Assembly: GCA_021776565.1 (NCBI GenBank)
Contig: JAJFFQ010000038.1
Location: forward strand, 1-64,000
Source: Robiginitomaculum sp.
GTDB taxonomy: Bacteria; Pseudomonadota; Alphaproteobacteria; Caulobacterales; Maricaulaceae
DNA length: 64,000 bases
Direction of reading: 5' to 3'
A program made the position numbers and the translations under genes. The notes below the pieces were generated by a model. That model was given only the letters and a program-made list of their open reading frames with translations. It was not told the origin of the DNA and made no database searches. Shown here in pieces: positions 2,477-60,012 of this stretch (its first letter is position 1; every line of letters starts with the position of its first letter).

Positions 2477-4711
2477 CTAGTGTTTTCTAGGCCTGAACAG
2501 CCCGGATCGTGGAAAACCACGCGGGGCCAGGCGGCCAGCCTGCGCACGCTTGCCAAGCCAGTCACGCCAATCCTTGCAGGTTATGGATCGTCCCCCGGGG
2601 TCAGTCCAGACCAGGCCATCCTGTGCGATAAAGGTCATGGCATCGGCAAGACCTCCGTCTTTATAACTTTGCAGTTTAACGCCCTTGCCACGGGCCATCT
2701 TGTTAACCTCGGCAAGAGGGTAACAGAGCATTTTATGGTTCTCGCCAACCACAGCAAGATAATCTCCGGTAATGCGTGTGCAGACAATGGCTTCTGCGGC
2801 AGGGCCAATATTCAGAACCTGCTTGCCCCCCTTGGTCAGCGCAATGATTGCTTTTTCTTCCAGCACAAAGCCATGCCCGGTGGTCGCCGCCACCAGCAGT
2901 TTTGCAGTTGGCTCATGCACAAAAAGGGCAATGGGCGTATGGCTCTCATCCAGATCAATTAACAAGCGGATGGGATCACCATGCCCGCGTCCGCCAGGTA
3001 GCTTATCGCAGGGCAAAGTATAGGCCTTGCCGTTAGAGGCAAACAACACCAGCTTGTCTGTACTTTGCACGGGCACAACAAAAGCCGCTTCATCGCCTTC
3101 TTTGAACTTTATATCAGTAATATCAGTTCCATGGCCTTTTAGCGCCCGTATCCAGCCCTTTTCCGACAACACGATCGTCAGTGGTTCCTTGACCACCATA
3201 GCTTCCAGTACGGCATTACGATCTTGCGGAATAATGTTTGCAAAACTGCTGCGCCGCGCTCCACCTTCAGACTTTGGCCCCAAGAGAACCTTCGCCTGTT
3301 TTATTTCTGTGGTAATTTTGGCCCATTGCATATTCGAATCGGCAAGTAATGCGTTTAACTCTGTTTGTTCACCATGCAGTGTCTCATCTTCGCGTCTTAG
3401 CTCCATTTCTTCCAGCTTACGCAAGGAACGCAAACGCATATTCAGGATGGCTTCGGCCTGGGTTTCGGTCAGAGAAAATGCAGAAATTAAATCCGCCTTG
3501 GGATGATCTTCTTCACGAATAATACGGATCACTTCATCAAGGTTCAAAAAAGCAATTATATAACCGGATAACACCTCCAACCGGTTGGCAATCTTTCCTA
3601 GTCGAGCGCGGGTGCGTCGTTGCAAAACTTCGCGCCTGTGATCCAGCCAGGCCTGTAAGGCTTCACGTAGCGATAACACCCCCGGCGTTCCATCGCTGCC
3701 CAAAACATTCAGATTAAGCGAAATTCGCACTTCCAGATCGCTAAGAGCAAACAGGGATTCCATAAATACATCCGCATCCACGGTACGGCTGCGCGGTTCC
3801 AGCACCAGGCGAATATCTTCTGCGGACTCGTCACGAACATCACCTAAAAGAGGTAGTTTTTTTGTCTCTATGAGCAAGGCAAGCTTTTCAATCAGCTTGG
3901 CTTTTTGCACCTGATAGGGAATTTCCGTGATAACAATCTGCCATTGCCCCCGTGCTAGTTCTTCGCGTTCCCAGCGTGAGCGTAGACGGAAGCCTCCCCG
4001 TCCGCTTGCATAGGCCTCAGCTCGTGTTTGCTCTGGCTCCACAATGATGCCACCTGTGGGAAAATCCGGCCCCGGCACAAACTTCATCAAGGTAGCAATA
4101 CTGGCCCCTGGAAATTTAATAAGATGTGCGGCCGCATCCAGCAGTTCGGCCGCATTATGTGGTGGAATGGACGTGGCCATGCCAACCGCGATGCCATTTG
4201 CGCCATTGGCCAGCAAGTTCGGATAGCCAGCTGGCAAAACCACAGGTTCATCATCTTCGCCGGAATAGGTCGTGCGAAAATCAACGGTGTCTTCATCAAT
4301 ACCTTCAAGCAAAAGGCGTGCAGCAATGGTCAGACGCGATTCTGTATAGCGCATGGCCGCCGCAGAATCGCCATCCACATTGCCAAAATTACCCTGTCCG
4401 TCTACCAGACGGTAACGCTGGGCAAAGTCCTGGGCCAACCTGACCAAGGCATCATAAACTGCCTGATCGCCGTGGGGGTGAAACCGCCCGATAACATCGC
4501 CAACCACACGGGCGCATTTTTTGAAACCGGACTCAGGGTCAAGTTTTAATTCGCGCATTGCAAACAATATGCGCCTGTGCACGGGCTTTAGTCCGTCCCG
4601 AACGTCGGGCAAAGCCCGCTGGGTTATGGTCGAAAGGGAATAAGCCAGATAACGGCTGGAAAGCGCGTCGTCTATGGATTCATCCAGAATAAGCCCCTCT
4701 GTGGCTTTCAT
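2477..4711 (-). CDS. parC: DNA topoisomerase IV subunit A
   Basis: ParC is the DNA-breaking subunit of topoisomerase IV, which decatenates daughter chromosomes together with ParE (not in this window). The breakage-reunion domain is clear. [13 protein letters not shown] lies near residue 41, and the catalytic tyrosine is in AAMRYTESR (Tyr122 counted from the start chosen here). The C-terminal half contains the degenerate beta-pinwheel that wraps DNA. The frame is open 17 codons further upstream, but the ATG at 4711 has GAGG 8 nt ahead and gives the usual [13 protein letters not shown] beginning, so 744 residues are annotated. It is flanked by lemA and a response regulator on the same strand. 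Confidence 0.93.
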
Positions 4712-4782
4712 TGCCATAACCTCGTGCCGAATCATAAATTCAATGAAGTATATGCCTGGCAATCAACAAAATGGAAAAGTGC

Positions 4783-5352
4783 TCACAGTTCCCAAACGTC
4801 AGCATCGGCCTGTGCAGTGGAAACCGGTTTTTGTCTCTGGCTGGAGGGTTTGGTAGCGTCAAGTATAACCGGTGTTTTCACAATACTCTTCGGCTTTGCT
4901 ACTGGCTTGGATTTCAGATAGATCATGCGGCCATTGCGACGCACTATTTCCCGGTCATCGTTATGCGCAAATCCCATTTTTTTTAAAAGTTCATGAGGAA
5001 CAACCGGTTTTACCAAAAATTGCGTTGCGCCTTTTTGCATAGCCTCAACCAGAATATCGCGCGAACCATGGCCCGTAACTATAATAACAGGTGTGCGGGC
5101 AATATGTTCGTCAGTATGGCACCGGATGCGATCCAGAAACACACTGCCGCCCGCACCTTCCATCAACCAGTCACACAACACCAGGGAAGGACGGGCATTT
5201 TCTATGTCAACACAGGCTTCATTAACACTTTCAAAGGGGCGCACAGAATAGCAGCCAAGATCCCGCAACAGAGCGGCCATAAGCGAACGTATACGCTGCG
5301 AGTCATCAATAATGACAACATCCATTCGTTTAATGGCTTGAGACGTAATCAC
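4783..5352 (-). CDS. Response regulator, single receiver domain with basic tail
   Basis: The first 125 residues form a CheY-like receiver. The acidic pair is Asp16-Asp17, the phosphoacceptor Asp61 (LVLCDWLMEG), the switch Thr93 (IIVTGHG) and the conserved Lys115 (FLVKPVVP). The remaining 65 residues are basic and proline- or lysine-rich, with no recognisable DNA-binding or enzymatic domain. The protein is therefore probably a stand-alone phospho-relay or protein-interaction regulator. The start is a GTG with GGGGA 7 nt upstream; the ATG nine codons later lacks a ribosome-binding site. No cognate histidine kinase is nearby, so its pathway cannot be named. Confidence 0.85.
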   Translation of the reverse strand: MITSQAIKRMDVVIIDDSQRIRSLMAALLRDLGCYSVRPFESVNEACVDIENARPSLVLCDWLMEGAGGSVFLDRIRCHTDEHIARTPVIIVTGHGSRDILVEAMQKGATQFLVKPVVPHELLKKMGFAHNDDREIVRRNGRMIYLKSKPVAKPKSIVKTPVILDATKPSSQRQKPVSTAQADADVWEL

Positions 5353-5599
5353 AAATGTTCCCCAAAAACTTGCATACAGAGCATTTAAAGCAAGAAGGTT
5401 AAAAGATCACATACAAGAGTCTGGATTGTGATTTTTAATCGATAAAGAATCAAAAACGTGCGATATTTTTCTCCATGACGCTGGTTTGCCGAAAAATGGG
5501 TTGCGCCGATGGAACGACTCCATACAAGTTCTCGGTCGGGAAGTCTGAACTGCACGATCACTTTTTGATTAAACAGCAGACCGGCCAAGGGAGCCATAA

Positions 5600-52515: not shown

Positions 52516-53865
52516 ATGTCTGATGTCTGGTGCCGATCCTGTATGCAAAAATCCGCTACGTCCGGACGCTGCACACACTGTGCGAGCACCTGCTTGATTG
52601 ACCACCCACAGGCCGCAAAACTGGACATTGCCCATGTCGACTGTGATGCATTTTATGCCTCCATCGAGAAACGCGATGATCCGTCCCTTGCCTCGGTGCC
52701 ATTGATAATTGGTGGTAATGACCGACGCGGTGTTGTGGCAACGGCTTGCTATCTGGCCCGTGCCTTTGGGATACATTCGGCCATGCCCATGTATCAGGCC
52801 AAAAAGCTCTGCCCTGATGCCCGCATTTTGCCGCCCAGCATGTCAAAATACACCCGCGAGGGACAGCGCCTGCGCACCATGATGCGTAACCTGACCCCCC
52901 TGGTTGAACCCTTGTCCATTGATGAGGCATTTTTGGATCTTACCGGAACCCGACGTGTGCATGGCGGGCCACCGGTGCAAACCCTGATGAGGTTTCAAAA
53001 AGCTGTTGAGGACGAGATCGGCATCACCGTATCCATCGGTCTTTCCTGCAACAAGTTTCTCGCCAAAACTGCGTCTGATCTGGATAAACCACGGGGATTT
53101 TCCATTCTGGCCCAGGACGAAGCCATTGCCTTTCTGGCCGATAAGCCGGTGCAGTTTATTTACGGGGTTGGCCCCGCCTTTGCGCGCAAGCTGGCGGCAG
53201 CGAGCATAACACGGATCAAACAGGTTCAAAACCTGTCTGTCGATACGATGGCAAAGCGCTTTGGTGAACAGGGGTGGCGGCTGGCACATCTGGCTAATGG
53301 TCTGGACACCCGCAAGGTTTCACCAGTTTCAATACGAAAATCAATTTCTTCGGAAACAACATTTTCCAAAAATATTTCAAACCTTGCCGCCCTTGAAAAA
53401 CAACTCTGGCGGCAATGCGAACGCGCATCATTTCATGCAAAAACCAAAGGTGTTGCGGGCGGCACGGCTACGCTCAAACTCAAGGATTCATACCACCAGA
53501 TCATTTCACGCCAAAAACCCCTCGATCCACCAACCAACCTCGCCGATGCGCTATTTCGCACCTTGCAACCCAGCCTGGCCAAGGAAGTGGGGGGCCGTTC
53601 CTTTCGCCTGATCGGTGCCGGATTTGCCTCTCTGTGCCCCGCTTTTGGCCCGGATTCTGGCCCGGATTCTGGCCCGGATTTGGAAGGCGATGAATGGCGC
53701 GATTTACTGGATGCTGAGGCACCGCGCCGCGCCAAGGCAGAGCGGGCCATGGATCGCGCCCGCGCCCGTTTTGGCCAAAATGCCGTGCAAAAAGGCCGTG
53801 CCATCGGGCCGGTTAAACCTGATCCACCTGATCCACCTGATCCACCTGATCCCTTTGACATATAA
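52516..53865 (+). CDS. dinB: DNA polymerase IV with N-terminal zinc finger
   Basis: This is a Y-family translesion polymerase of 449 residues. A short CxxC...CxxC finger (CRSCMQKSATSGRCTHC) precedes the polymerase core, a form seen in some Alphaproteobacteria. The catalytic carboxylates are in AHVDCDAFYASIE and PLSIDEAFLDL, and the steric-gate region is CDAFY. The C-terminus is repetitive (GPDSGPDSGPD and repeated DPP) and lacks the usual beta-clamp motif at its end as far as I can see. The ATG at 52516 has GGAA upstream; the open frame from 52444 overlaps the promoter. An SOS box lies upstream. Confidence 0.92.
   Translation: MSDVWCRSCMQKSATSGRCTHCASTCLIDHPQAAKLDIAHVDCDAFYASIEKRDDPSLASVPLIIGGNDRRGVVATACYLARAFGIHSAMPMYQAKKLCPDARILPPSMSKYTREGQRLRTMMRNLTPLVEPLSIDEAFLDLTGTRRVHGGPPVQTLMRFQKAVEDEIGITVSIGLSCNKFLAKTASDLDKPRGFSILAQDEAIAFLADKPVQFIYGVGPAFARKLAAASITRIKQVQNLSVDTMAKRFGEQGWRLAHLANGLDTRKVSPVSIRKSISSETTFSKNISNLAALEKQLWRQCERASFHAKTKGVAGGTATLKLKDSYHQIISRQKPLDPPTNLADALFRTLQPSLAKEVGGRSFRLIGAGFASLCPAFGPDSGPDSGPDLEGDEWRDLLDAEAPRRAKAERAMDRARARFGQNAVQKGRAIGPVKPDPPDPPDPPDPFDI
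53647..53682 (+). repeat. 12-bp in-frame tandem repeat in dinB
   Basis: Three copies of GGCCCGGATTCT (the last ending TTTG) encode Gly-Pro-Asp-Ser repeats. The unit is a multiple of three, so changes in copy number by slippage would keep the frame. Confidence 0.85.
53818..53853 (+). repeat. 9-bp in-frame tandem repeat at the dinB 3' end
   Basis: Four copies of CCTGATCCA (the last CCTGATCCC) encode Pro-Asp-Pro repeats, eight codons before the dinB stop. Copy-number change would lengthen or shorten the tail without a frameshift. Confidence 0.85.
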
Positions 53866-53917
53866 CTAATGCTCGGTGGAATAATTATGAAATTAGTGTT
53901 TATTATGATTCTTGACA

Positions 53918-54163
53918 ATGACAGCACAAAGAAAACCAAAGCGAGATGAGAATGCCGGACAAAAAGACAAGACGGAACAGTTCATTACGAACGCAGAAAC
54001 GATTGACCAAATGATTGCGCCGGTAAAGTTGAAAAAAATGCCTGTTGCGCCTCGTTTCAAGGCCGACTTTCGGGTAGCCATAGACAGTATGACTGCAAGG
54101 CGCGACACAGCGCGCAACGCAATCATTTCATACTGGTGTTCTAAGGGGGTTGAGAGCAAGTAA
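53918..54163 (+). CDS. Small basic protein of unknown function at the head of the methyltransferase island
   Basis: I do not recognise this 81-residue protein. It is highly charged at the N-terminus (MTAQRKPKRDENAGQKDKTEQF). A possible helical DNA-binding or regulatory part follows (FRVAIDSMTARRDTARNAIISYW), but no helix-turn-helix or ribbon-helix-helix motif is convincing. It ends 43 nt before the first methyltransferase on the same strand, in AT-richer DNA than dinB. A controller-like role is possible only by position. No strong ribosome-binding site was seen, so it may not be translated. Confidence 0.5.
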   Translation: MTAQRKPKRDENAGQKDKTEQFITNAETIDQMIAPVKLKKMPVAPRFKADFRVAIDSMTARRDTARNAIISYWCSKGVESK

Positions 54164-54206
54164 TGAAAGCCCAGTTCCAATACCTTGTCAGTGCCAAGGT
54201 CTGTCA

Positions 54207-55154
54207 ATGAAAATTGTGTCACTTTTTAGCGGGGCAGGTGGCCTCGATCTTGGACTCATTCAAGCAGGCCACGAAATTATATGGGCAAATGACTTCGATT
54301 CCGATTGTGTAGATACCTACGAACACAATATAGGGAGGCATATAAGGCTTGGCTCTATTGAAGATATAAAATCCGATGAAATTCCCACAGGCGATGTCGT
54401 TGTTGGTGGGTTTCCGTGTCAGGGGTTTTCACAAGCAAACCGCTTACGCTCTGGCGATGATCCTCGAAATAGCCTTTATAGAGAGTTTCTCCGTATTGTC
54501 ACAGACAACCAACCAAAATGGTTTCTTGCCGAAAATGTACGCGGAATTTTGAGTTTAGACGGTGGTGCGGCAATAAAAAAAATCGAGAGTGACTTTTCAA
54601 AGGCAGGGTACCGAGTGCAAAAAAGGCTTTTTAACACAGCAGATTATGGTGTTCCGCAATCTCGACGGCGGGTAATTATTGCGGGTACCAGAAAAGACCT
54701 GCCTAGCGCACTTGATTACACCTACCCAGAAGCCACGCATTCAAAACATGGTAGCGGCAGTTTAAAAAAATGGTGCAATATTGGGAACGCACTAAAGCAA
54801 ATACCAGAACCTGATGGTGAGCATCAGCTAATCAATCATATCTGTTCTCAATACAAAGTGACTAATCGAAACTTTACGGGGCATAGAACAACAGACCCAA
54901 AAAAACCTTCACCTACTATTCTAGCGCGGGGCAACGCGAAGGGGGGCGTTTGCGCTATACAACACCCTAAAAATCATCGGCGCATGTCCATTCGAGAGCA
55001 AGCAATAATTCAAACATTTCCTAATGCATTTGAGTTTCTTGGGCGAATGAACTCTTGCTACCGACAAGTAGGAAACGCTGTTCCTGTCCTGTTTGGACAA
55101 TATCTTGGCGAACAACTTGGTGCGACAGAAAAACTAAAGCGAGAAGCCTCATGA
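54207..55154 (+). CDS. DNA (cytosine-5) methyltransferase, first of tandem pair
   Basis: The enzyme transfers a methyl group from SAM to C5 of cytosine in a specific DNA site. The 315 residues hold all main motifs: I (SLFSGAGGLDLG, residues 5-16), IV with catalytic Cys71 in GGFPCQGFS, VI with Glu109 in AENVRG, VIII in VPQSRRRVIIAG, then a short target-recognition region, IX (RMSIREQAIIQTFP) and X (YRQVGNAVPV). AAGG precedes the ATG at 54207; the frame is open 19 codons upstream from a TTG. Its stop overlaps the next methyltransferase start (ATGA). The 5' region is about 92% identical to that gene. Confidence 0.93.
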   Translation: MKIVSLFSGAGGLDLGLIQAGHEIIWANDFDSDCVDTYEHNIGRHIRLGSIEDIKSDEIPTGDVVVGGFPCQGFSQANRLRSGDDPRNSLYREFLRIVTDNQPKWFLAENVRGILSLDGGAAIKKIESDFSKAGYRVQKRLFNTADYGVPQSRRRVIIAGTRKDLPSALDYTYPEATHSKHGSGSLKKWCNIGNALKQIPEPDGEHQLINHICSQYKVTNRNFTGHRTTDPKKPSPTILARGNAKGGVCAIQHPKNHRRMSIREQAIIQTFPNAFEFLGRMNSCYRQVGNAVPVLFGQYLGEQLGATEKLKREAS

Positions 55155-56122
55155 AAATTGTATCACTCTTTAGCGGGGCAGGTGGTCTCGATCTTGGACT
55201 CGTTCAAGCTGGCCACGAAATTATATGGGCAAACGATATCTATGCAGATGCTGTAGCAACATACAGAAAAAATATCGGAAATCATGTCTATATGCGTGAC
55301 ATAAGTGAAATACCTTCCAGTGAAATACCCTCTTGTGATGTCGTTGTTGGTGGGTTTCCGTGTCAGGGGTTTTCAGTCGCTAATTGGGGCAGAACAATTA
55401 AAGATGAGCGCAACAAGCTCTATAAAGAAATGGTTAGAGTGATCGACGATAAAAAACCTCGGTTTTTTATTGCGGAGAATGTCAAAGGACTTATTTCGTT
55501 GGGAAAAGGAGAAATCTTAAAACGAATAATTTCTGATTTCTCAAGGGTTGGCTACAAAACGACTTGGCACGTATTAAATTCAGCAGACTATGGTGTGCCC
55601 CAAAAGCGAATGCGGTTTGTAATGCTAGGTGTACGCAATGACATTGCGACCTTGCCGTCAATTTTTCCACCAGAGCCTACTCATCACGACCCCACCAAAA
55701 AAGGGAATTGTGCTAAGCTAAAACCTTGGCTGTCAGTTGGAAGGGCTTTAGCACATATACCTGAACCAGAGCTTGCCCCTGATATTCCTAATCATCAGTA
55801 TTCAAAATACAAATTGCGGTTTAATGGTCATATGGGTCACCGCTATATTGACCCCGACAAGCCCGCGCCAACGGTCACAGGCAGAGGTGATGAAAAAGGC
55901 GGGGTTGTTGTTTTACACCACCCTAAAAATCATCGTCGAATGTCTGCAAGAGAGCTGGCAACCGTCCAGTCATTTCCTGATAATTTTGTATTTGAAGGCA
56001 CAAAAACATCCGCATATCGACAAATTGCAAATGCCGTCCCCCCAGCACTTGGATATGCTATTGGTGTCATGCTTTCAAAAAATGCCAACCAAATTTTGCA
56101 TTTTGATCGTGAAGCAATATGA
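55151..56122 (+). CDS. DNA (cytosine-5) methyltransferase, second of tandem pair
   Basis: This is a paralogue of the preceding gene, 323 residues long, with the same motif positions: SLFSGAGGLDLG (5-16), Cys71 in GGFPCQGFS, Glu109 in AENVKG, VPQKRMRFVMLG, RMSARELATVQSFP and YRQIANAVPP. The region between motifs VIII and IX, which reads the DNA, differs from that of its partner, so the two probably recognise different strands or sites. The start lies in the stop of the first gene and its own stop overlaps the HNH gene (both ATGA), giving a coupled three-gene operon. Confidence 0.93.
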   Translation: MKIVSLFSGAGGLDLGLVQAGHEIIWANDIYADAVATYRKNIGNHVYMRDISEIPSSEIPSCDVVVGGFPCQGFSVANWGRTIKDERNKLYKEMVRVIDDKKPRFFIAENVKGLISLGKGEILKRIISDFSRVGYKTTWHVLNSADYGVPQKRMRFVMLGVRNDIATLPSIFPPEPTHHDPTKKGNCAKLKPWLSVGRALAHIPEPELAPDIPNHQYSKYKLRFNGHMGHRYIDPDKPAPTVTGRGDEKGGVVVLHHPKNHRRMSARELATVQSFPDNFVFEGTKTSAYRQIANAVPPALGYAIGVMLSKNANQILHFDREAI

Positions 56123-57360
56123 ATGACATAAGAACTCCCATTAAACCGTTTCCTACTTTTAAGTGGAGGTGGCTTAGTGTTGCGCCTAGTGAAGGCCTTC
56201 TCAAAGCTCCTGTTTTTCTAGGTGTTTTACGTGCCCTTCAACAACACGAAGGGGAAAGGTACAGCTCTATCGGCTTACACCACAAATTACAGCGCGTTAA
56301 AACAGATACTGGAACAGAAATTGACCTTGCACGCACCCCAGAGCGCAATCTATTCAGAAATTCCGGGCAATATTGGCGGGGAACGGGCTTAGTGGTACTC
56401 AAAACACGAGAAATTCAACTTACAGGCCTAGGCAGAAATATCGCATCAGGAAATATTACGAACGATGAATTCACCGCTTTAATGGTTAGAAATACTGTGC
56501 TTCCAAATCCATTAACCTATAGCCCTGCTGAAATCAAAAAATGGAGTGACGCCAATTTACGCATCAAACCGTTAGAGTTGATTTTAGCTGTAATGGACAA
56601 GTTGGGGCGTGAATATGGTGTTTCTCAATCATTCATAAGCCCCAACGAACTCATTAAGGTGCTGATCCCATTATCTGGAGAGAATACACCCGTTGCGATC
56701 TGCGCCAAAGCAATCCACGCTTTTAGAAATGGGCTACTTGATATTTCTGCTTGGCCAAATTGTGTTCCAGCAGCAAATGATAAAAGGCTTGCGAGAGAGT
56801 TTTTATTATTTCTCGAAAATTTTGATATTTGCCAAACAACTGAATCGGCAGATAATTATGAGCAAAGATTTTATATCGACCAAGTTTTGAGTGAAGAAAT
56901 ACACCCAGACCTACAACGAACATTCTTAGAAAATACTGAATTAGCAGAAGAAGAAGTCAATAACTCTAGATATTCAGAAATACCTATTATCATCGAAAGA
57001 AAACGTGTGGCCACAAGTGTTATTCGCCGAACTAGCCAGTCTCGCTTTAGAAGGGAGGTCTTTGCAGCAGGCGGAAATCGTTGCGTGTTAACTCAAGAGC
57101 AAACGCCAGATGTTTTGGAGGCCGCGCATATCATACCTGTTGACCATGGTGGCTCCGACCTCGTTGGGAATGGCTTTTGTATGCGTGTAGATATACATCG
57201 CTTGTTTGATGGTGGAAAGATAAGAATTAAGGCTGATGGAACCGTGCAACTTAATGAACAAATTGAAAATACTATTAGTTATGCAGATTTACCAAGAATG
57301 GTTCCCCTCCCTCAATCTACTGGGTTAGAAAATGTTGAATGGCGTTCTCGTTATCTATAA
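56119..57360 (+). CDS. HNH endonuclease, probable restriction enzyme of the methyltransferase operon
   Basis: The C-terminal third (about residues 305-372) is an HNH-2 type nuclease: FRREVFAAGGNRC, then VLEAAHIIPVDHGG with His337, Asn351 in GNGF, and His360 in DIHRLFDGG. The first 300 residues are not recognised. They have a mixed helical composition and no helicase or ATPase motif, and they may recognise DNA. Coupling to two methyltransferases by ATGA overlap suggests it is the nuclease of a type II restriction system. A modified-DNA-dependent nuclease would be odd beside its own methylases. A hairpin follows 5 nt after the stop. Confidence 0.8.
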   Translation: MNDIRTPIKPFPTFKWRWLSVAPSEGLLKAPVFLGVLRALQQHEGERYSSIGLHHKLQRVKTDTGTEIDLARTPERNLFRNSGQYWRGTGLVVLKTREIQLTGLGRNIASGNITNDEFTALMVRNTVLPNPLTYSPAEIKKWSDANLRIKPLELILAVMDKLGREYGVSQSFISPNELIKVLIPLSGENTPVAICAKAIHAFRNGLLDISAWPNCVPAANDKRLAREFLLFLENFDICQTTESADNYEQRFYIDQVLSEEIHPDLQRTFLENTELAEEEVNNSRYSEIPIIIERKRVATSVIRRTSQSRFRREVFAAGGNRCVLTQEQTPDVLEAAHIIPVDHGGSDLVGNGFCMRVDIHRLFDGGKIRIKADGTVQLNEQIENTISYADLPRMVPLPQSTGLENVEWRSRYL

Positions 57361-57365
57361 ACATA

Positions 57366-57391
57366 GGTGCAAAACCCACCCACTTTGCACC
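57366..57391 (+). terminator. Hairpin after the restriction-modification operon
   Basis: GGTGCAAA and TTTGCACC form an 8-bp perfect stem with a 10-nt loop, starting 5 nt after the HNH stop. It is followed by an AT-rich run without a clear U-tract, so it is a possible terminator of the operon. Confidence 0.55.
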
Positions 57392-57466
57392 AATTATATA
57401 ATACAACAATTTCAAGCACCTACACTTGCAAAACCATATTACAAAACTCCGGAAAGCAAGTCGGAT

Positions 57467-57504
57467 AGGCTTGCCTCTTGATAGCTAATTATAGGCAAGC
57501 GCCT
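57467..57504. terminator. Hairpin downstream of the degenerate GGDEF gene
   Basis: AGGCTTGCCT (57467-57476) and AGGCAAGCGCCT (57493-57504) pair with a 2-nt bulge. It lies just past the stop of the minus-strand gene ending at 57515. No strong U-run was seen. Confidence 0.4.
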
Positions 57505-57514
57505 GCACAAATAA

Positions 57515-58831
57515 TCAAGATAAAGACTTATCCAGCGCCCGGTGTAGTAAGCCTTCACTGGATTCGCGAACGCGCAACTCCACCACCCTGATTTCCAGTT
57601 CAAGCTGGAACGGGCGATCTTCATTGCCACTTTCAAACGCTGTGCAATCTATCACGCCCTCAATACGGCTGGCGGCGATTTTCGCGTCTGCCTCTGTCGT
57701 TCCGGGCATGACAATCGCAAAGGCACCCGAGCCAAGACGCGAGGCCATATCTTCGGCACGAACCAGATGGCGCAACATGCCGCCAAGCTGTCGCCGCGCA
57801 GACTGGCGGTATACTTTTTCTATGTCCGGTGGTGAAACCGCACGTATCACAGCTAGAGAAAGCGGTCGGTTAATCTCGCGGGCGCGGCGCGTCATTCGTC
57901 CAAGATGATGAGCGAAAAATGCAGGATTAAAAAGCCCGGTTTCTTTTTCCAGCACACTGTTTGTGCGCACCCCGTCAAACAATGCCTTGGTGCTTTCATG
58001 ACGTTGGCGCTCCCGGGCCAGTCCCAATACTCTTTGGCGCGAGTCGCTCTCGTCAACACTGGCATCCAACAGGTCGCTGGCACCACGGGCAAAGGCTTCA
58101 TCCACATCCGTAAATGATCGCGAATCAACCAATAATATCGCCGGGACATGAAACAGACGCGTATTGCGGCGCATGGCCGCCACAATGGTAAAGGCCGGCT
58201 CGTTCTCTATCAGTGCATTAAGAACGATGGCGTCAAAATTGCTGTTATGCAAATAATCAAAGGCGGTGAAGGAGGTCATGGCCGCTGTTACCTCAGCCCC
58301 GGCCTGTTCCAGTGCGTTTTTCAAGGCGATAAATTGCGGTGCTGCCGTACCAACAAAAAGTATGGATAAATGTTCTGGCGGCGCAGAAGCGGAGAATAAA
58401 TCAGGCATATCTTCGCCCAATGCCGCCATGGTTTTTCGGCGTTGCACCGCTTCTTCTTCCATCAGGGCTACGCGCAAGGCGGACTGCAAGCGCGCTTCGA
58501 GTTGCGCGGGATGCACGGGTGGGCGCAATAGGCTGGCGAACAAATCTTCACCGGTCTCATGCTCGCCTTGTTCGGCCACAGCCAATATTGGCAAAGGCCG
58601 TATGCCCGCTTCAGTTTTTAGACGCCTTGCCAGCGCAACCGTTTCCCCGAAAGGTCGATCCAGCGCATCAATCATCACGCCTTCCACGGTAAAATCCGCA
58701 GCGGCAATGACAGCTTCATCATCTGTTTTGGCATAAACCGTGTGCAGCCCCGCGCCGTCCAGCCGCGCCGCCGTTTCGGATACAATTCCGTCCCCACTGG
58801 AGACAATAAGAATTCGTGCGGTAAAATCCAT
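57515..58831 (-). CDS. Degenerate two-receiver/GGDEF protein, probably catalytically inactive
   Basis: About 438 residues have the same plan as PleD: two receiver-like folds (about 1-120 and 155-270) and a C-terminal GGDEF-like domain. The receivers lack a convincing phosphoacceptor aspartate. The GGDEF signature is replaced by GSGAF (SRLGSGAFAIVMPGT), so it should not make cyclic di-GMP, although it could bind it or act as a scaffold. The start is uncertain: the ATG at 58831 (MDFTARILIVSS) fits the domain start, while the frame is open to 58927 and a GAGGGA lies 15 nt before the chosen ATG. It is divergent from the CoA-racemase gene. Confidence 0.72.
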   Translation of the reverse strand: MDFTARILIVSSGDGIVSETAARLDGAGLHTVYAKTDDEAVIAAADFTVEGVMIDALDRPFGETVALARRLKTEAGIRPLPILAVAEQGEHETGEDLFASLLRPPVHPAQLEARLQSALRVALMEEEAVQRRKTMAALGEDMPDLFSASAPPEHLSILFVGTAAPQFIALKNALEQAGAEVTAAMTSFTAFDYLHNSNFDAIVLNALIENEPAFTIVAAMRRNTRLFHVPAILLVDSRSFTDVDEAFARGASDLLDASVDESDSRQRVLGLARERQRHESTKALFDGVRTNSVLEKETGLFNPAFFAHHLGRMTRRAREINRPLSLAVIRAVSPPDIEKVYRQSARRQLGGMLRHLVRAEDMASRLGSGAFAIVMPGTTEADAKIAASRIEGVIDCTAFESGNEDRPFQLELEIRVVELRVRESSEGLLHRALDKSLS

Positions 58832-58905
58832 TGACTGCGTTACAATTCCCTCGATTCGCCGAATGACCATACCGGCATAAACGGGCAAGAAGAAAGGGCA
58901 AGGGC

Positions 58906-60012
58906 ATGGGAAATCACACAAAGCCATCTGGCCCCCTAAAAGGCCTCAAAATTCTGGAGTTTGCCGGCCTTGGCCCTGTGCCCTTTTGCGCCATGCTATT
59001 GGGGGATCTGGGTGCAGACGTTGTCCGTATAGATCGCCCCGGCACACCCGATGCTGGGCCGAGCGACATTACCTCACGAGGGCGGCGCTCTATTATCCTT
59101 GACCTGAAATCTGCGCACGATCAAAAAACCGCACACGCACTGGTCGGCAAAGCCGATGCGCTACTGGAAGGGTTTCGTCCCGGCGTGATGGAAAAACTGG
59201 GCCTTGGCCCAGAAATACTGCTGGCAATCAATCCACGGCTTGTTTTTGGGCGCATGACGGGTTGGGGGCAGGACGGGCCACTGGCACAGGCGGCCGGGCA
59301 TGATTTGAATTATATTGCCATTACCGGCGCACTCGGTGCCATGGGCGAGGCAGATCGCCCCCCTGCCCCGCCGCTTAATCTGGTGGGCGATTATGGTGGC
59401 GGTGCGCTGTATCTGGCGTTTGGTATTATGGCGGCATTGCATCACGTGCAAAAAACCGGTCAGGGACAGGTTGTGGACTGCGCCATTGTTGACGGGGTGA
59501 TGAGCATGATGGCCCCCATTCACTGGTTACGGCAAACCGGCATGTGGAATGAGAAAGTGCGCCAGGCCAACCTTCTGGATGGCGGTGCATTTTTTTACGC
59601 CAGCTATACCTGCGCCGATGGTAAATTTTTCACAATCGGTGCGATTGAGCCGCAATTTTATGCGATTTTGCGAGAAAAACTGGGCCTTGATGGCAAAGAA
59701 TGGAATACCCCTTTTGATGCGGCGAACTGGCCTGATTTACGCAAAAAACTGGCGGCGATATTTATCGGGCACCCCCGCGCCCACTGGCAGGAACTGCTGG
59801 AGGGCAGTGATGCGTGTGCTGCCGGAATTATGGATATGGTCGAGGCCGCAGAACACCCCCATAACAAGGCGCGAAAAAATCTGTTAGAGGTGGGCGGCAT
59901 AGTGCAGCCCGCACCCGCGCCGCGCTTTTCCAAAACCCCCGGCGCCATTACCGGGCCGCCACCAAAACCCGGCGCGGATATGGACGCTGTATTAAAAGAC
60001 TGGAACGTTTAG
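58906..60012 (+). CDS. Alpha-methylacyl-CoA racemase / CoA-transferase family III
   Basis: This 368-residue protein of the CaiB/BaiF family has the N-terminal LKGLKILEFAGLGPVPFCAMLLGDLGADVVR and the racemase catalytic pair His132 (AGHDLNY) and Asp162 (LVGDYGGG). It is therefore predicted to invert the alpha-methyl centre of branched acyl-CoA esters. A formyl- or other CoA-transferase is less likely because those use an aspartate in a different context. AAGGGC precedes the ATG. The stop overlaps the modC stop by 4 nt on the opposite strand. Confidence 0.85.
   Translation: MGNHTKPSGPLKGLKILEFAGLGPVPFCAMLLGDLGADVVRIDRPGTPDAGPSDITSRGRRSIILDLKSAHDQKTAHALVGKADALLEGFRPGVMEKLGLGPEILLAINPRLVFGRMTGWGQDGPLAQAAGHDLNYIAITGALGAMGEADRPPAPPLNLVGDYGGGALYLAFGIMAALHHVQKTGQGQVVDCAIVDGVMSMMAPIHWLRQTGMWNEKVRQANLLDGGAFFYASYTCADGKFFTIGAIEPQFYAILREKLGLDGKEWNTPFDAANWPDLRKKLAAIFIGHPRAHWQELLEGSDACAAGIMDMVEAAEHPHNKARKNLLEVGGIVQPAPAPRFSKTPGAITGPPPKPGADMDAVLKDWNV

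What the first reader, a model, noticed from the sequence alone, without database searches (positions are those of the whole stretch)
53918..57391. AT-rich island with a small ORF, two tandem cytosine methyltransferases and an HNH nuclease
The sequence shows three genes joined by ATGA overlaps (two C5 methyltransferases with complete motifs, then a protein with a C-terminal HNH domain). A small unknown ORF precedes them and a hairpin follows, between chromosomal genes dinB and a GGDEF-like gene. Established knowledge: type II systems with asymmetric sites may use two C5 methyltransferases, one per strand, as in HgaI. Inference: this is a compact restriction-modification system acquired horizontally, and the nuclease part with its unrecognised first 300 residues may be a new restriction-enzyme family. 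It is the best candidate in the window for an undescribed system.
Basis: partly seen in the sequence, partly recalled or inferred. Interest (0 to 1): 0.75.

Follow-up and report, generated by a model that had tools for sequence, protein, structure and literature searches.

The report
Plasmid-derived two-methylase restriction system
A bacterial DNA-cutting defence system (two DNA-marking enzymes plus a cutter that seems to join a known kind of DNA-reading head to a different kind of blade) that most likely came in on a small plasmid, whose leftover ends still flank it in the chromosome.

Summary
In detail: between dinB and a GGDEF gene lies a 3.65-kb AT-rich island with a small ORF, two C5-cytosine methyltransferases and an HNH protein, the last three joined by ATGA overlaps. 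I read it as a Type II (probably IIS-like) restriction-modification system. All four distinct loci found that encode full-length R carry the order M1-M2-R. The 'unrecognised' first ~265 residues of R look like the double winged-helix reading domain of BpuJI/Nt.BspD6I (two low-confidence models agree). The cutter is HNH, not PD-(D/E)XK, so R is no BpuJI member.

The small ORF is a relic of a ribbon-helix-helix gene that follows parA on a rep-parA-rhh-cargo-resolvase-relaxase contig (G053:C27). The 'hairpin' end is homologous to the region before, and the start of, that contig's resolvase gene. Such ends surround other cargo in two same-genus genomes; a left-end fragment sits by a second R-M pair in this genome. 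The dinB-GGDEF site was seen empty in 9 of 17 other genomes of the genus (8 uninformative). Specificity and activity are untested. New variant of a known kind.

The parts
53866..57514 (.). whole island between dinB (ends 53865) and the convergent GGDEF gene (57515-58927, -)
   Evidence: G+C 0.430 vs mean 0.522 elsewhere in the window; 9 of 17 other same-genus genomes show dinB and the GGDEF gene side by side (8 of these junctions printed)
53918..54163 (+). small ORF = diverged relic of a plasmid ribbon-helix-helix gene (rhh) that follows parA
   Evidence: 63% aa identity to the G003:C37 copy; DNA homology to G003 spans just this ORF, 73.7% over 251 nt; the G053 copy overlaps a parA-like gene; RHH_1 hits the G003 and G053 copies weakly, just below its cut-off (1.2e-3, 5.4e-4) and not the window copy
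54163..54210 (+). 15-codon mini-ORF (ATG begins in the rhh stop codon, TGA overlaps the M1 start); possible translational coupling, not tested
   Evidence: sequence
54207..55154 (+). M1, C5-cytosine DNA methyltransferase
   Evidence: PF00145 1.1e-71; 72% and 70% identical to the M1s of L002 and L003
55151..56122 (+). M2, C5-cytosine DNA methyltransferase with a different target-recognition region
   Evidence: PF00145 1.6e-74; 52% identical to M1
54207..54446 (+). M1 codons 1-80, gene-conversion tract shared with M2 55151-55390
   Evidence: 27/36 and 17/21 same-residue codons identical to M2 (75%, 81%), against 40% and 43% in the rest of the genes
56119..57360 (+). R, 413-aa putative restriction endonuclease
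   Evidence: co-conserved with M1-M2 in L002, L003 and L078
56119..56913 (+). R residues 1-265: predicted double winged-helix DNA-reading domain
   Evidence: models m13a0f729e002 and m736bd1125e19; BpuJI recognition domain Z 12.3 (229 aligned, rmsd 5.0) and Z 9.0 (209 aligned, rmsd 5.3); Foldseek prob 1.00, E 3.5e-3, TM 0.46/0.44
57082..57225 (+). HNH_2 nuclease domain; H337, N351, H360 invariant in four sequences
57359..57512 (+). relic of the plasmid resolvase region: hairpin and TTRCAAAACC repeats, then a degenerate start of the resolvase gene
   Evidence: local alignment to G053 score 54, shuffle maximum 45, 0 of 1000 reach it; to G003:C37 53 (shuffle maximum 31), to G008 43 (39), to G003:C75 40 (38), 0 of 500 each; BLAST to G053 only E 0.04 over 51 nt

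Best explanation
The island is a complete Type II restriction-modification system, probably Type IIS-like. R reads an asymmetric DNA site with an N-terminal double winged-helix head of the BpuJI/FokI sort and cuts nearby with a C-terminal HNH domain; M1 and M2 each put a 5-methylcytosine on one strand of the same site and so protect the host. It was cargo on a small mobilizable plasmid (rep-parA-rhh-[cargo]-resolvase-relaxase) and was left in the chromosome between dinB and a GGDEF gene, with a bit of plasmid backbone at each end. Shown: gene content, operon overlaps, co-conservation of the trio, conserved catalytic residues, the empty site in relatives, and homology of both ends to the plasmid-like contig. 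Inferred: the fold of the reading head (low-confidence models), one shared asymmetric site, cutting outside it, methylation, activity today, that the contig is a plasmid, and that selection against losing the R-M system favoured its capture by the chromosome.
For: M1-M2-R in the same order in the window, L002, L003 and L078. The window M1 is 70-72% identical to the M1s of L002 and L003 but 50-53% to four M2s; in a tree M1s group (support 0.84) apart from M2s (0.95), so the two specificities are old. H337/N351/H360 invariant in 4 sequences. Both models rank BpuJI and Nt.BspD6I first: Z 12.3 against 6.1 for the best unrelated row; 9.0 against 7.5; Foldseek prob 1.00. BpuJI_N is a weak sequence hit in one homologue (E 0.042; 0.019 with its N-terminal part). 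Empty site in 9 of 17 other same-genus genomes. Left end = rhh; right end = resolvase region. Precedent: a plasmid carrying PaeR7I R-M was found integrated in the E. coli chromosome when its replication was blocked, and an R-negative mutation lowered successful integration by two orders (PMC3031569, abstract read).
Against: Both models have low confidence (mean pLDDT 46.8 and 56.8); Foldseek E 3.5e-3 with TM below 0.5 is modest, and the tool warns that middling Z can mean only a common arrangement; BpuJI_N stays below Pfam's cut-off, and the profile of the N-terminal alignment found no restriction enzyme in the PDB. The window's right end is too diverged for BLAST: it was not returned in the family search at E 1e-3 and rests on shuffled-alignment tests, two of them with narrow margins. 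G053:C27 was not shown to be circular (no terminal overlap); 'plasmid' is read from its genes, and its parA match is below NCBIfam's cut-off (137 against 180). The G053 rhh has only weak relatives in the plasmid collection (7 records, at most 36% over most of its length) and the window copy none. Left breakpoints differ between loci, so no single integration mechanism is shown. No methylation or cleavage data.
Confidence: 0.72

Rival explanations
1. R is a modification-dependent (Type IV/IIM-like) HNH nuclease, like the phosphorothioate-dependent SBD-HNH enzymes, and the methyltransferases merely sit beside it.
For: The nuclease part matches the PT-DNA_restrict model NF045808 (3.4e-10, residues 223-385) and PADLOC HNH PDLC04132 (1.1e-11); the best PDB profile hit is an entry named HNH endonuclease (6yex, 4.3e-5).
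Against: NF045808 score 39.5 against a cut-off of 180; in the L003 homologue the match covers residues 296-387, about the HNH part. The trio stays together in the 4 loci found; the head resembles sequence-reading domains.
Confidence: 0.08
2. The shared ends belong to a self-contained mobile cassette that moves through the resolvase region as a recombination site, rather than to random capture of plasmid pieces.
For: Unrelated cargo lies between the same two ends in G003:C37, G003:C75 and G008:C11.
Against: Left breakpoints lie at different points: whole rhh in the window, rep/parA pieces in G003:C37, and 107, 103 and 55 nt of rhh elsewhere; no ORF of the window island was identified as an integrase or transposase (only its four genes were scanned); G000:C42 has no detectable right end.
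Confidence: 0.13
3. The small ORF is a working regulator (control protein) of the R-M system.
For: It or a piece of it lies just upstream of R-M-like genes at 4 of the 6 places found (window, G003:C37, G008:C11, G000:C42); dN/dS between the window and G003 copies is 0.32 by NG86 (0.68 by YN00).
Against: At the other two places the cargo is not R-M: G053:C27, where the gene overlaps a parA-like gene, and G003:C75. Three of the six copies are fragments. No similar ORF was seen by eye upstream of M1 in L003. No helix-turn-helix family hit.
Confidence: 0.1
4. The system is decaying: one or more genes no longer work and the island is a neutral remnant.
For: The rhh copy and the right end are degenerate.
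Against: All three R-M genes are full length with intact catalytic motifs.
Confidence: 0.12

Closest known systems
BpuJI (Type IIS; site CCCGT recalled)
   Same: the N-terminal ~265 residues of R resemble its DNA-recognition domain (2vla, 5hnf)
   Different: BpuJI's cutter is of the PD-(D/E)XK, Hjc-like kind (recalled); here it is HNH_2. Sequence identity in the aligned head is only 9-13%
HNH Type IIS enzymes (MnlI CCTC 7/6, HpyAV CCTTC 6/5, Eco31I, HphI)
   Same: HNH cutter and a separate reading part, with methyltransferase genes beside it for HpyAV/Hin4II (PMC2816704 and PMC4081073, passages read)
   Different: HpyAV's catalytic set is H294, H295, N311, H320 (PMC2816704, passage); here A336, H337, N351, H360, so the first His is absent. 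HpyAV/Hin4II pair one C5 with one N6A methylase, not two C5. No sequence of MnlI, HphI or HpyAV was compared
Phosphorothioate-dependent SBD-HNH enzymes (model NF045808; EcoWI and SprMcrA in PMC7461809, passages; that these belong to the model is my inference from its name)
   Same: nearest NCBIfam model for the nuclease half
   Different: far below the model's cut-off; the reading part resembles another fold
Two-C5-methylase systems such as HgaI
   Same: two C5 methyltransferases, presumably one per strand (HgaI recalled; the 2014 review describes paired methyltransferases in general and does not name HgaI)
   Different: no sequence of HgaI was available to compare
PaeR7I R-M on a plasmid captured by the E. 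coli chromosome (PMC3031569, abstract)
   Same: plasmid-borne R-M found in the chromosome after plasmid replication was blocked
   Different: there 24 of 28 products were at chromosomal insertion sequences; no insertion sequence was recognised among the ORFs of the window island

Membership tests
Type II R-M with paired methyltransferases for an asymmetric site | two DNA methyltransferase genes beside a nuclease gene | tested here: met
Type II R-M with paired methyltransferases for an asymmetric site | each methylase marks one strand of one asymmetric site | not testable with these tools
   needs methylation data; different M1 and M2 target regions are only consistent with it
Type IIS restriction enzyme | separate N-terminal reading and C-terminal cutting domains | tested here: inconclusive
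   HNH at the C-terminus; head fold from low-confidence models
Type IIS restriction enzyme | cleavage outside the site | not testable with these tools
   enzyme assay needed
BpuJI family | BpuJI_N domain (PF11564) | tested here: inconclusive
   E 0.042 (whole) and 0.019 (N-terminal part) in one of four homologues, below cut-off; fold matches
BpuJI family | PD-(D/E)XK nuclease domain (recalled) | tested here: not met
   HNH_2 instead
HpyAV-type HNH enzymes | catalytic His-His...Asn...His | tested here: not met
   A336-H337...N351...H360 (HpyAV residues from PMC2816704); aligned by motif only
PT-dependent restriction enzymes (NF045808) | model score of 180 or more | tested here: not met
   39.5 bits
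C5-cytosine methyltransferase (PF00145) | domain over the curated cut-off with catalytic PCQ | tested here: met
R-M control (C) protein, for the small ORF | C-protein-type helix-turn-helix (recalled) | tested here: inconclusive
   no family for the window copy; weak ribbon-helix-helix hits for the G003 and G053 homologues
Plasmid parA-rhh pair, for the small ORF | gene directly after parA on a rep-bearing element | tested here: inconclusive
   met for the homologue on G053:C27; the window copy has no parA beside it, and the contig was not shown to be circular

The most novel reading that the evidence does not exclude
A family of restriction enzymes that arose by joining a BpuJI/FokI-type double winged-helix reading head to an HNH blade, carried by a plasmid family with one cargo slot between its partition (parA-rhh) and resolvase modules; unrelated R-M systems and other genes are loaded into that slot, and the chromosomes of this bacterial genus are being seeded with them, each still carrying plasmid ends.
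Probability: 0.45. Interest if true: 0.6.

Novelty: new variant of a known kind. Interest (0 to 1): 0.45.

Why it matters
If right, R shows that a DNA-reading head also seen in BpuJI and FokI (and compared with BREX BrxA in PMC9240713) drives an HNH cutter too, which makes head-blade exchange directly testable and could offer a new cutting or nicking enzyme. The plasmid-end signature gives a natural setting for the idea that restriction systems persist by being captured when their plasmid is lost: the same slot, different cargo, countable across one genus.

Tried and rejected
Druantin or DISARM membership from the PADLOC DruM/DrmMII hits: rejected; the best 25 of 64 models listed for each methylase are all methylase models, and R hit only HNH models. 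BpuJI_N in genomes: 0 of 299, and 0 of 14 controls, so it says nothing. IMG/VR scans with R and with A1: no relatives. Plasmid and phage tblastn with R: 0 of 1098 and 0 of 8 records have a place covering 80%; in the 40 plasmid rows listed the match begins at residue 210 or later. Two of these plasmid loci (Pseudomonas) were opened: no methyltransferase annotated near the HNH gene. R in relatives: 27 of 99 genomes and 12 of 398 at 1e-15, own genome included in both; apart from the window, listed matches begin at residue 261 or later. The N-terminal part: 2 of 385 (own included; the other is G181) and 1 of 350 (G929:C11:25130, the same coordinates as L003, so not counted as new). M1 in plasmids and M2 in plasmids and phages: best about 42%, no specificity named in the rows listed, so no target site is proposed; M1 was not searched in phages. 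PDB search of the N-terminal alignment: one hit, PsbF, E 0.23. Promoter and terminator scans: no excess. Repeat search: no target-site duplication or terminal repeat recognised at the island ends. The right end was not found beside G000:C42 (216 of 1000 shuffles reach its score). Small ORF: 3 of 61 genomes, 5 of 137 with the G003 copy (the G018 hit, E 0.007 inside a 982-aa frame, was dropped), 3 of 136 by DNA pattern, none in phages or plasmids with the window copy. Resolvase-region end in the family: 6 of 114 genomes; G003 (two places) and G053 are used, and the 29-42-nt matches in G002, G012, G1172 and G1173 were not followed. A first-80-codon tree of M1/M2 does not recover an M1 group, as expected under conversion but also of a short alignment.
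Full report
WHAT IS THERE. M1, M2 and R are linked by ATGA overlaps; between the small ORF and M1 lies a 15-codon mini-ORF whose ATG begins in the small ORF's stop and whose TGA overlaps the M1 start. The island 53866-57514 has G+C 0.430; 266 overlapping stretches of that length elsewhere in the window average 0.522 with a minimum of 0.493.

ACQUIRED. The GGDEF gene has a match in all 18 genomes of the genus held, own included. In 9 of the 17 others the fetched locus shows dinB directly beside it (L048-L055, L057), with 20-69 bases between the aligned ends and no M1 or R hit at 1e-5; eight of these junctions are printed. In the other 8 dinB was not in the fetched stretch, so they say nothing.

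THE TRIO. R has few full-length relatives here: L002 (50%), L003 (48-49%) and G181 (L034/L078, 36-38%). The scans were thin (a short-pattern scan of genome contigs; 385, 398 and 350 genomes), so rarity is only indicated. All three and the window have the order M1-M2-R. M1s share one target region and M2s another (G181 M1 read); a tree groups M1s (0.84) apart from M2s (0.95). L003 lies near an integrase gene (PF00589) next to tRNA-Phe, again a mobile setting.

THE NUCLEASE. Pfam sees only HNH domains in R and its relatives, besides one weak BpuJI_N hit; the other libraries hit mainly the C-terminal part, the longest match being residues 223-385. H337, N351 and H360 are invariant in four sequences. 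Two AlphaFold models, whole protein (mean pLDDT 46.8) and residues 1-265 (56.8), are weak, and both use the same four sequences. Yet both rank the BpuJI recognition domain and Nt.BspD6I first: Z 12.3 over 229 residues, rmsd 5.0, best unrelated row 6.1; Z 9.0 over 209 residues, rmsd 5.3, best unrelated row 7.5 over 70 residues; Foldseek probability 1.00, E 3.5e-3, TM 0.46/0.44. One homologue (L003) hits BpuJI_N weakly (E 0.042; 0.019 with the N-terminal part). I take the head as a BpuJI/FokI-type double winged helix with fair, not full, confidence. BrxA of BREX has been compared with the same heads (PMC9240713, passages). The nuclease half is nearest to NF045808 among NCBIfam models but far under its cut-off.

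BOTH ENDS LOOK LIKE PLASMID. The small ORF has homologues in G003:C37 (63%), in G053:C27 (83% identical to the G003 copy) and as a fragment in G008:C11. Its DNA homology with G003 covers just the ORF (73.7% over 251 nt). On G053:C27 (8646 bases, not shown circular) it overlaps a parA-like gene (AAA_31, 2.9e-19), preceded by a replication initiator (PF10134, 3.5e-87). Cargo follows it: a C39-peptidase ABC exporter and an ORF that looks HlyD-like (not scanned). Then come a serine resolvase (PF00239, 1.2e-44) and a relaxase gene cut by the contig end (PF03432, 5.5e-23). The initiator has 37 plasmid relatives at 60-80% identity among 1088 records; the 12 listed are from genera that I recall as Alphaproteobacteria. 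The rhh gene itself has only weak plasmid relatives (7 records). The window's right end, hairpin included, aligns with the stretch just before the G053 resolvase gene and with its first codons: score 54, 0 of 1000 shuffles reaching it (maximum 45), against 25 and 21 for two control stretches of the window. Right ends at G003:C37, G003:C75 and G008:C11 score 121, 123 and 138 in the same test. Pairwise, the window's end beats every shuffle against G003:C37 clearly (53, maximum 31) and against G008 and G003:C75 narrowly (43 to 39, 40 to 38). I read the repeats before the resolvase gene as its res site, an inference from position. The BLAST search of 114 family genomes did not return the window's end, so if the reading is right it is an old, diverged relic.

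OTHER CARGO, SAME ENDS. G003:C37: an N6/N4 methylase plus a Bpu10I-type nuclease (PF09549, 2.4e-69), with rep and parA pieces and an IS240-type transposase upstream. G008:C11: an unnamed ORF plus a methylase. G003:C75: a weakly DUF5677-like gene (1.6e-3), between genes that look like trmB and rimP, with a Fic/Doc gene beyond. The window's own genome, C42: a TaqI_C/Eco57I-type methylase plus an unnamed ORF, in the same slot, with 55 nt of the left end only. The names trmB and rimP are mine, from the look of the ORFs; that the two slots are the same is shown by DNA alignment on both sides. Left breakpoints vary, so capture of plasmid pieces fits better than a site-specific element.

HOW IT WORKS. 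M1 and M2 protect, R cuts. Plasmid-borne Type II systems are described as killing cells that lose them (PMC11324026, start of abstract in the listing), and blocking plasmid replication in E. coli gave chromosomal capture that depended on active R (PMC3031569, abstract). I infer the same here. A 2014 review describes Type IIS systems as usually carrying two methyltransferases (PMC4081073, passages).

GENE CONVERSION. Over codons 1-80 M1 and M2 of the window use identical codons at 75-81% of shared residues, against 40-43% further on and 25-64% between orthologues over the same codons. L002 shows a raised value over codons 46-80 (73%; 45% over 1-45), L003 does not (30-32%). In the window the shared catalytic half seems to have been homogenised while the target regions stay different.

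LITERATURE. Seven searches of an open-licence library listed no paper that describes an HNH enzyme with a BpuJI-type head; two combined BpuJI with HNH, and in the one opened the two words stand in different contexts (passages). This is a statement about those searches only.

VERDICT. Ordinary in kind (Type II R-M), unusual in its likely build and with a readable history. New variant of a known kind.

Noticed in passing
window 54207-54446 and 55151-55390: Gene conversion between the catalytic halves of M1 and M2, including a 39-base identical stretch around the PCQ motif; target regions are not affected.
   Followed up: partly
L089 (G000:C42:5000-16000), about 3048-5520: Second R-M-like pair in the same genome, next to 55 nt of the same plasmid left end and in the same chromosomal slot as an unrelated insertion in G003:C75.
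   Followed up: partly
L075 4220-8165 (G003:C37): Bpu10I-type R-M between rep/parA/rhh pieces and the resolvase-region end, with an IS240-type transposase upstream.
   Followed up: partly
L076 6043-6849: 268-aa ORF beside a methylase with no Pfam or NCBIfam hit; candidate unknown restriction enzyme.
   Followed up: no
L093 (G053:C27): Plasmid-like contig with a C39-peptidase ABC exporter and an HlyD-like ORF in the cargo slot, perhaps a bacteriocin export pair.
   Followed up: no
window 53817-53852: Nine-base unit ACCTGATCC repeated four times at the 3' end of dinB, at the island's left border; the 8 relatives printed lack it.
   Followed up: no
L003 4859-5574: TumE-like toxin gene and an HVO_A0114-type HTH gene upstream of the homologous R-M system.
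   Followed up: no
G000:C7:7078, G000:C50:32261, G000:C63:11812: Three further C5-methylase matches in the window's genome besides M1 and M2.
   Followed up: no
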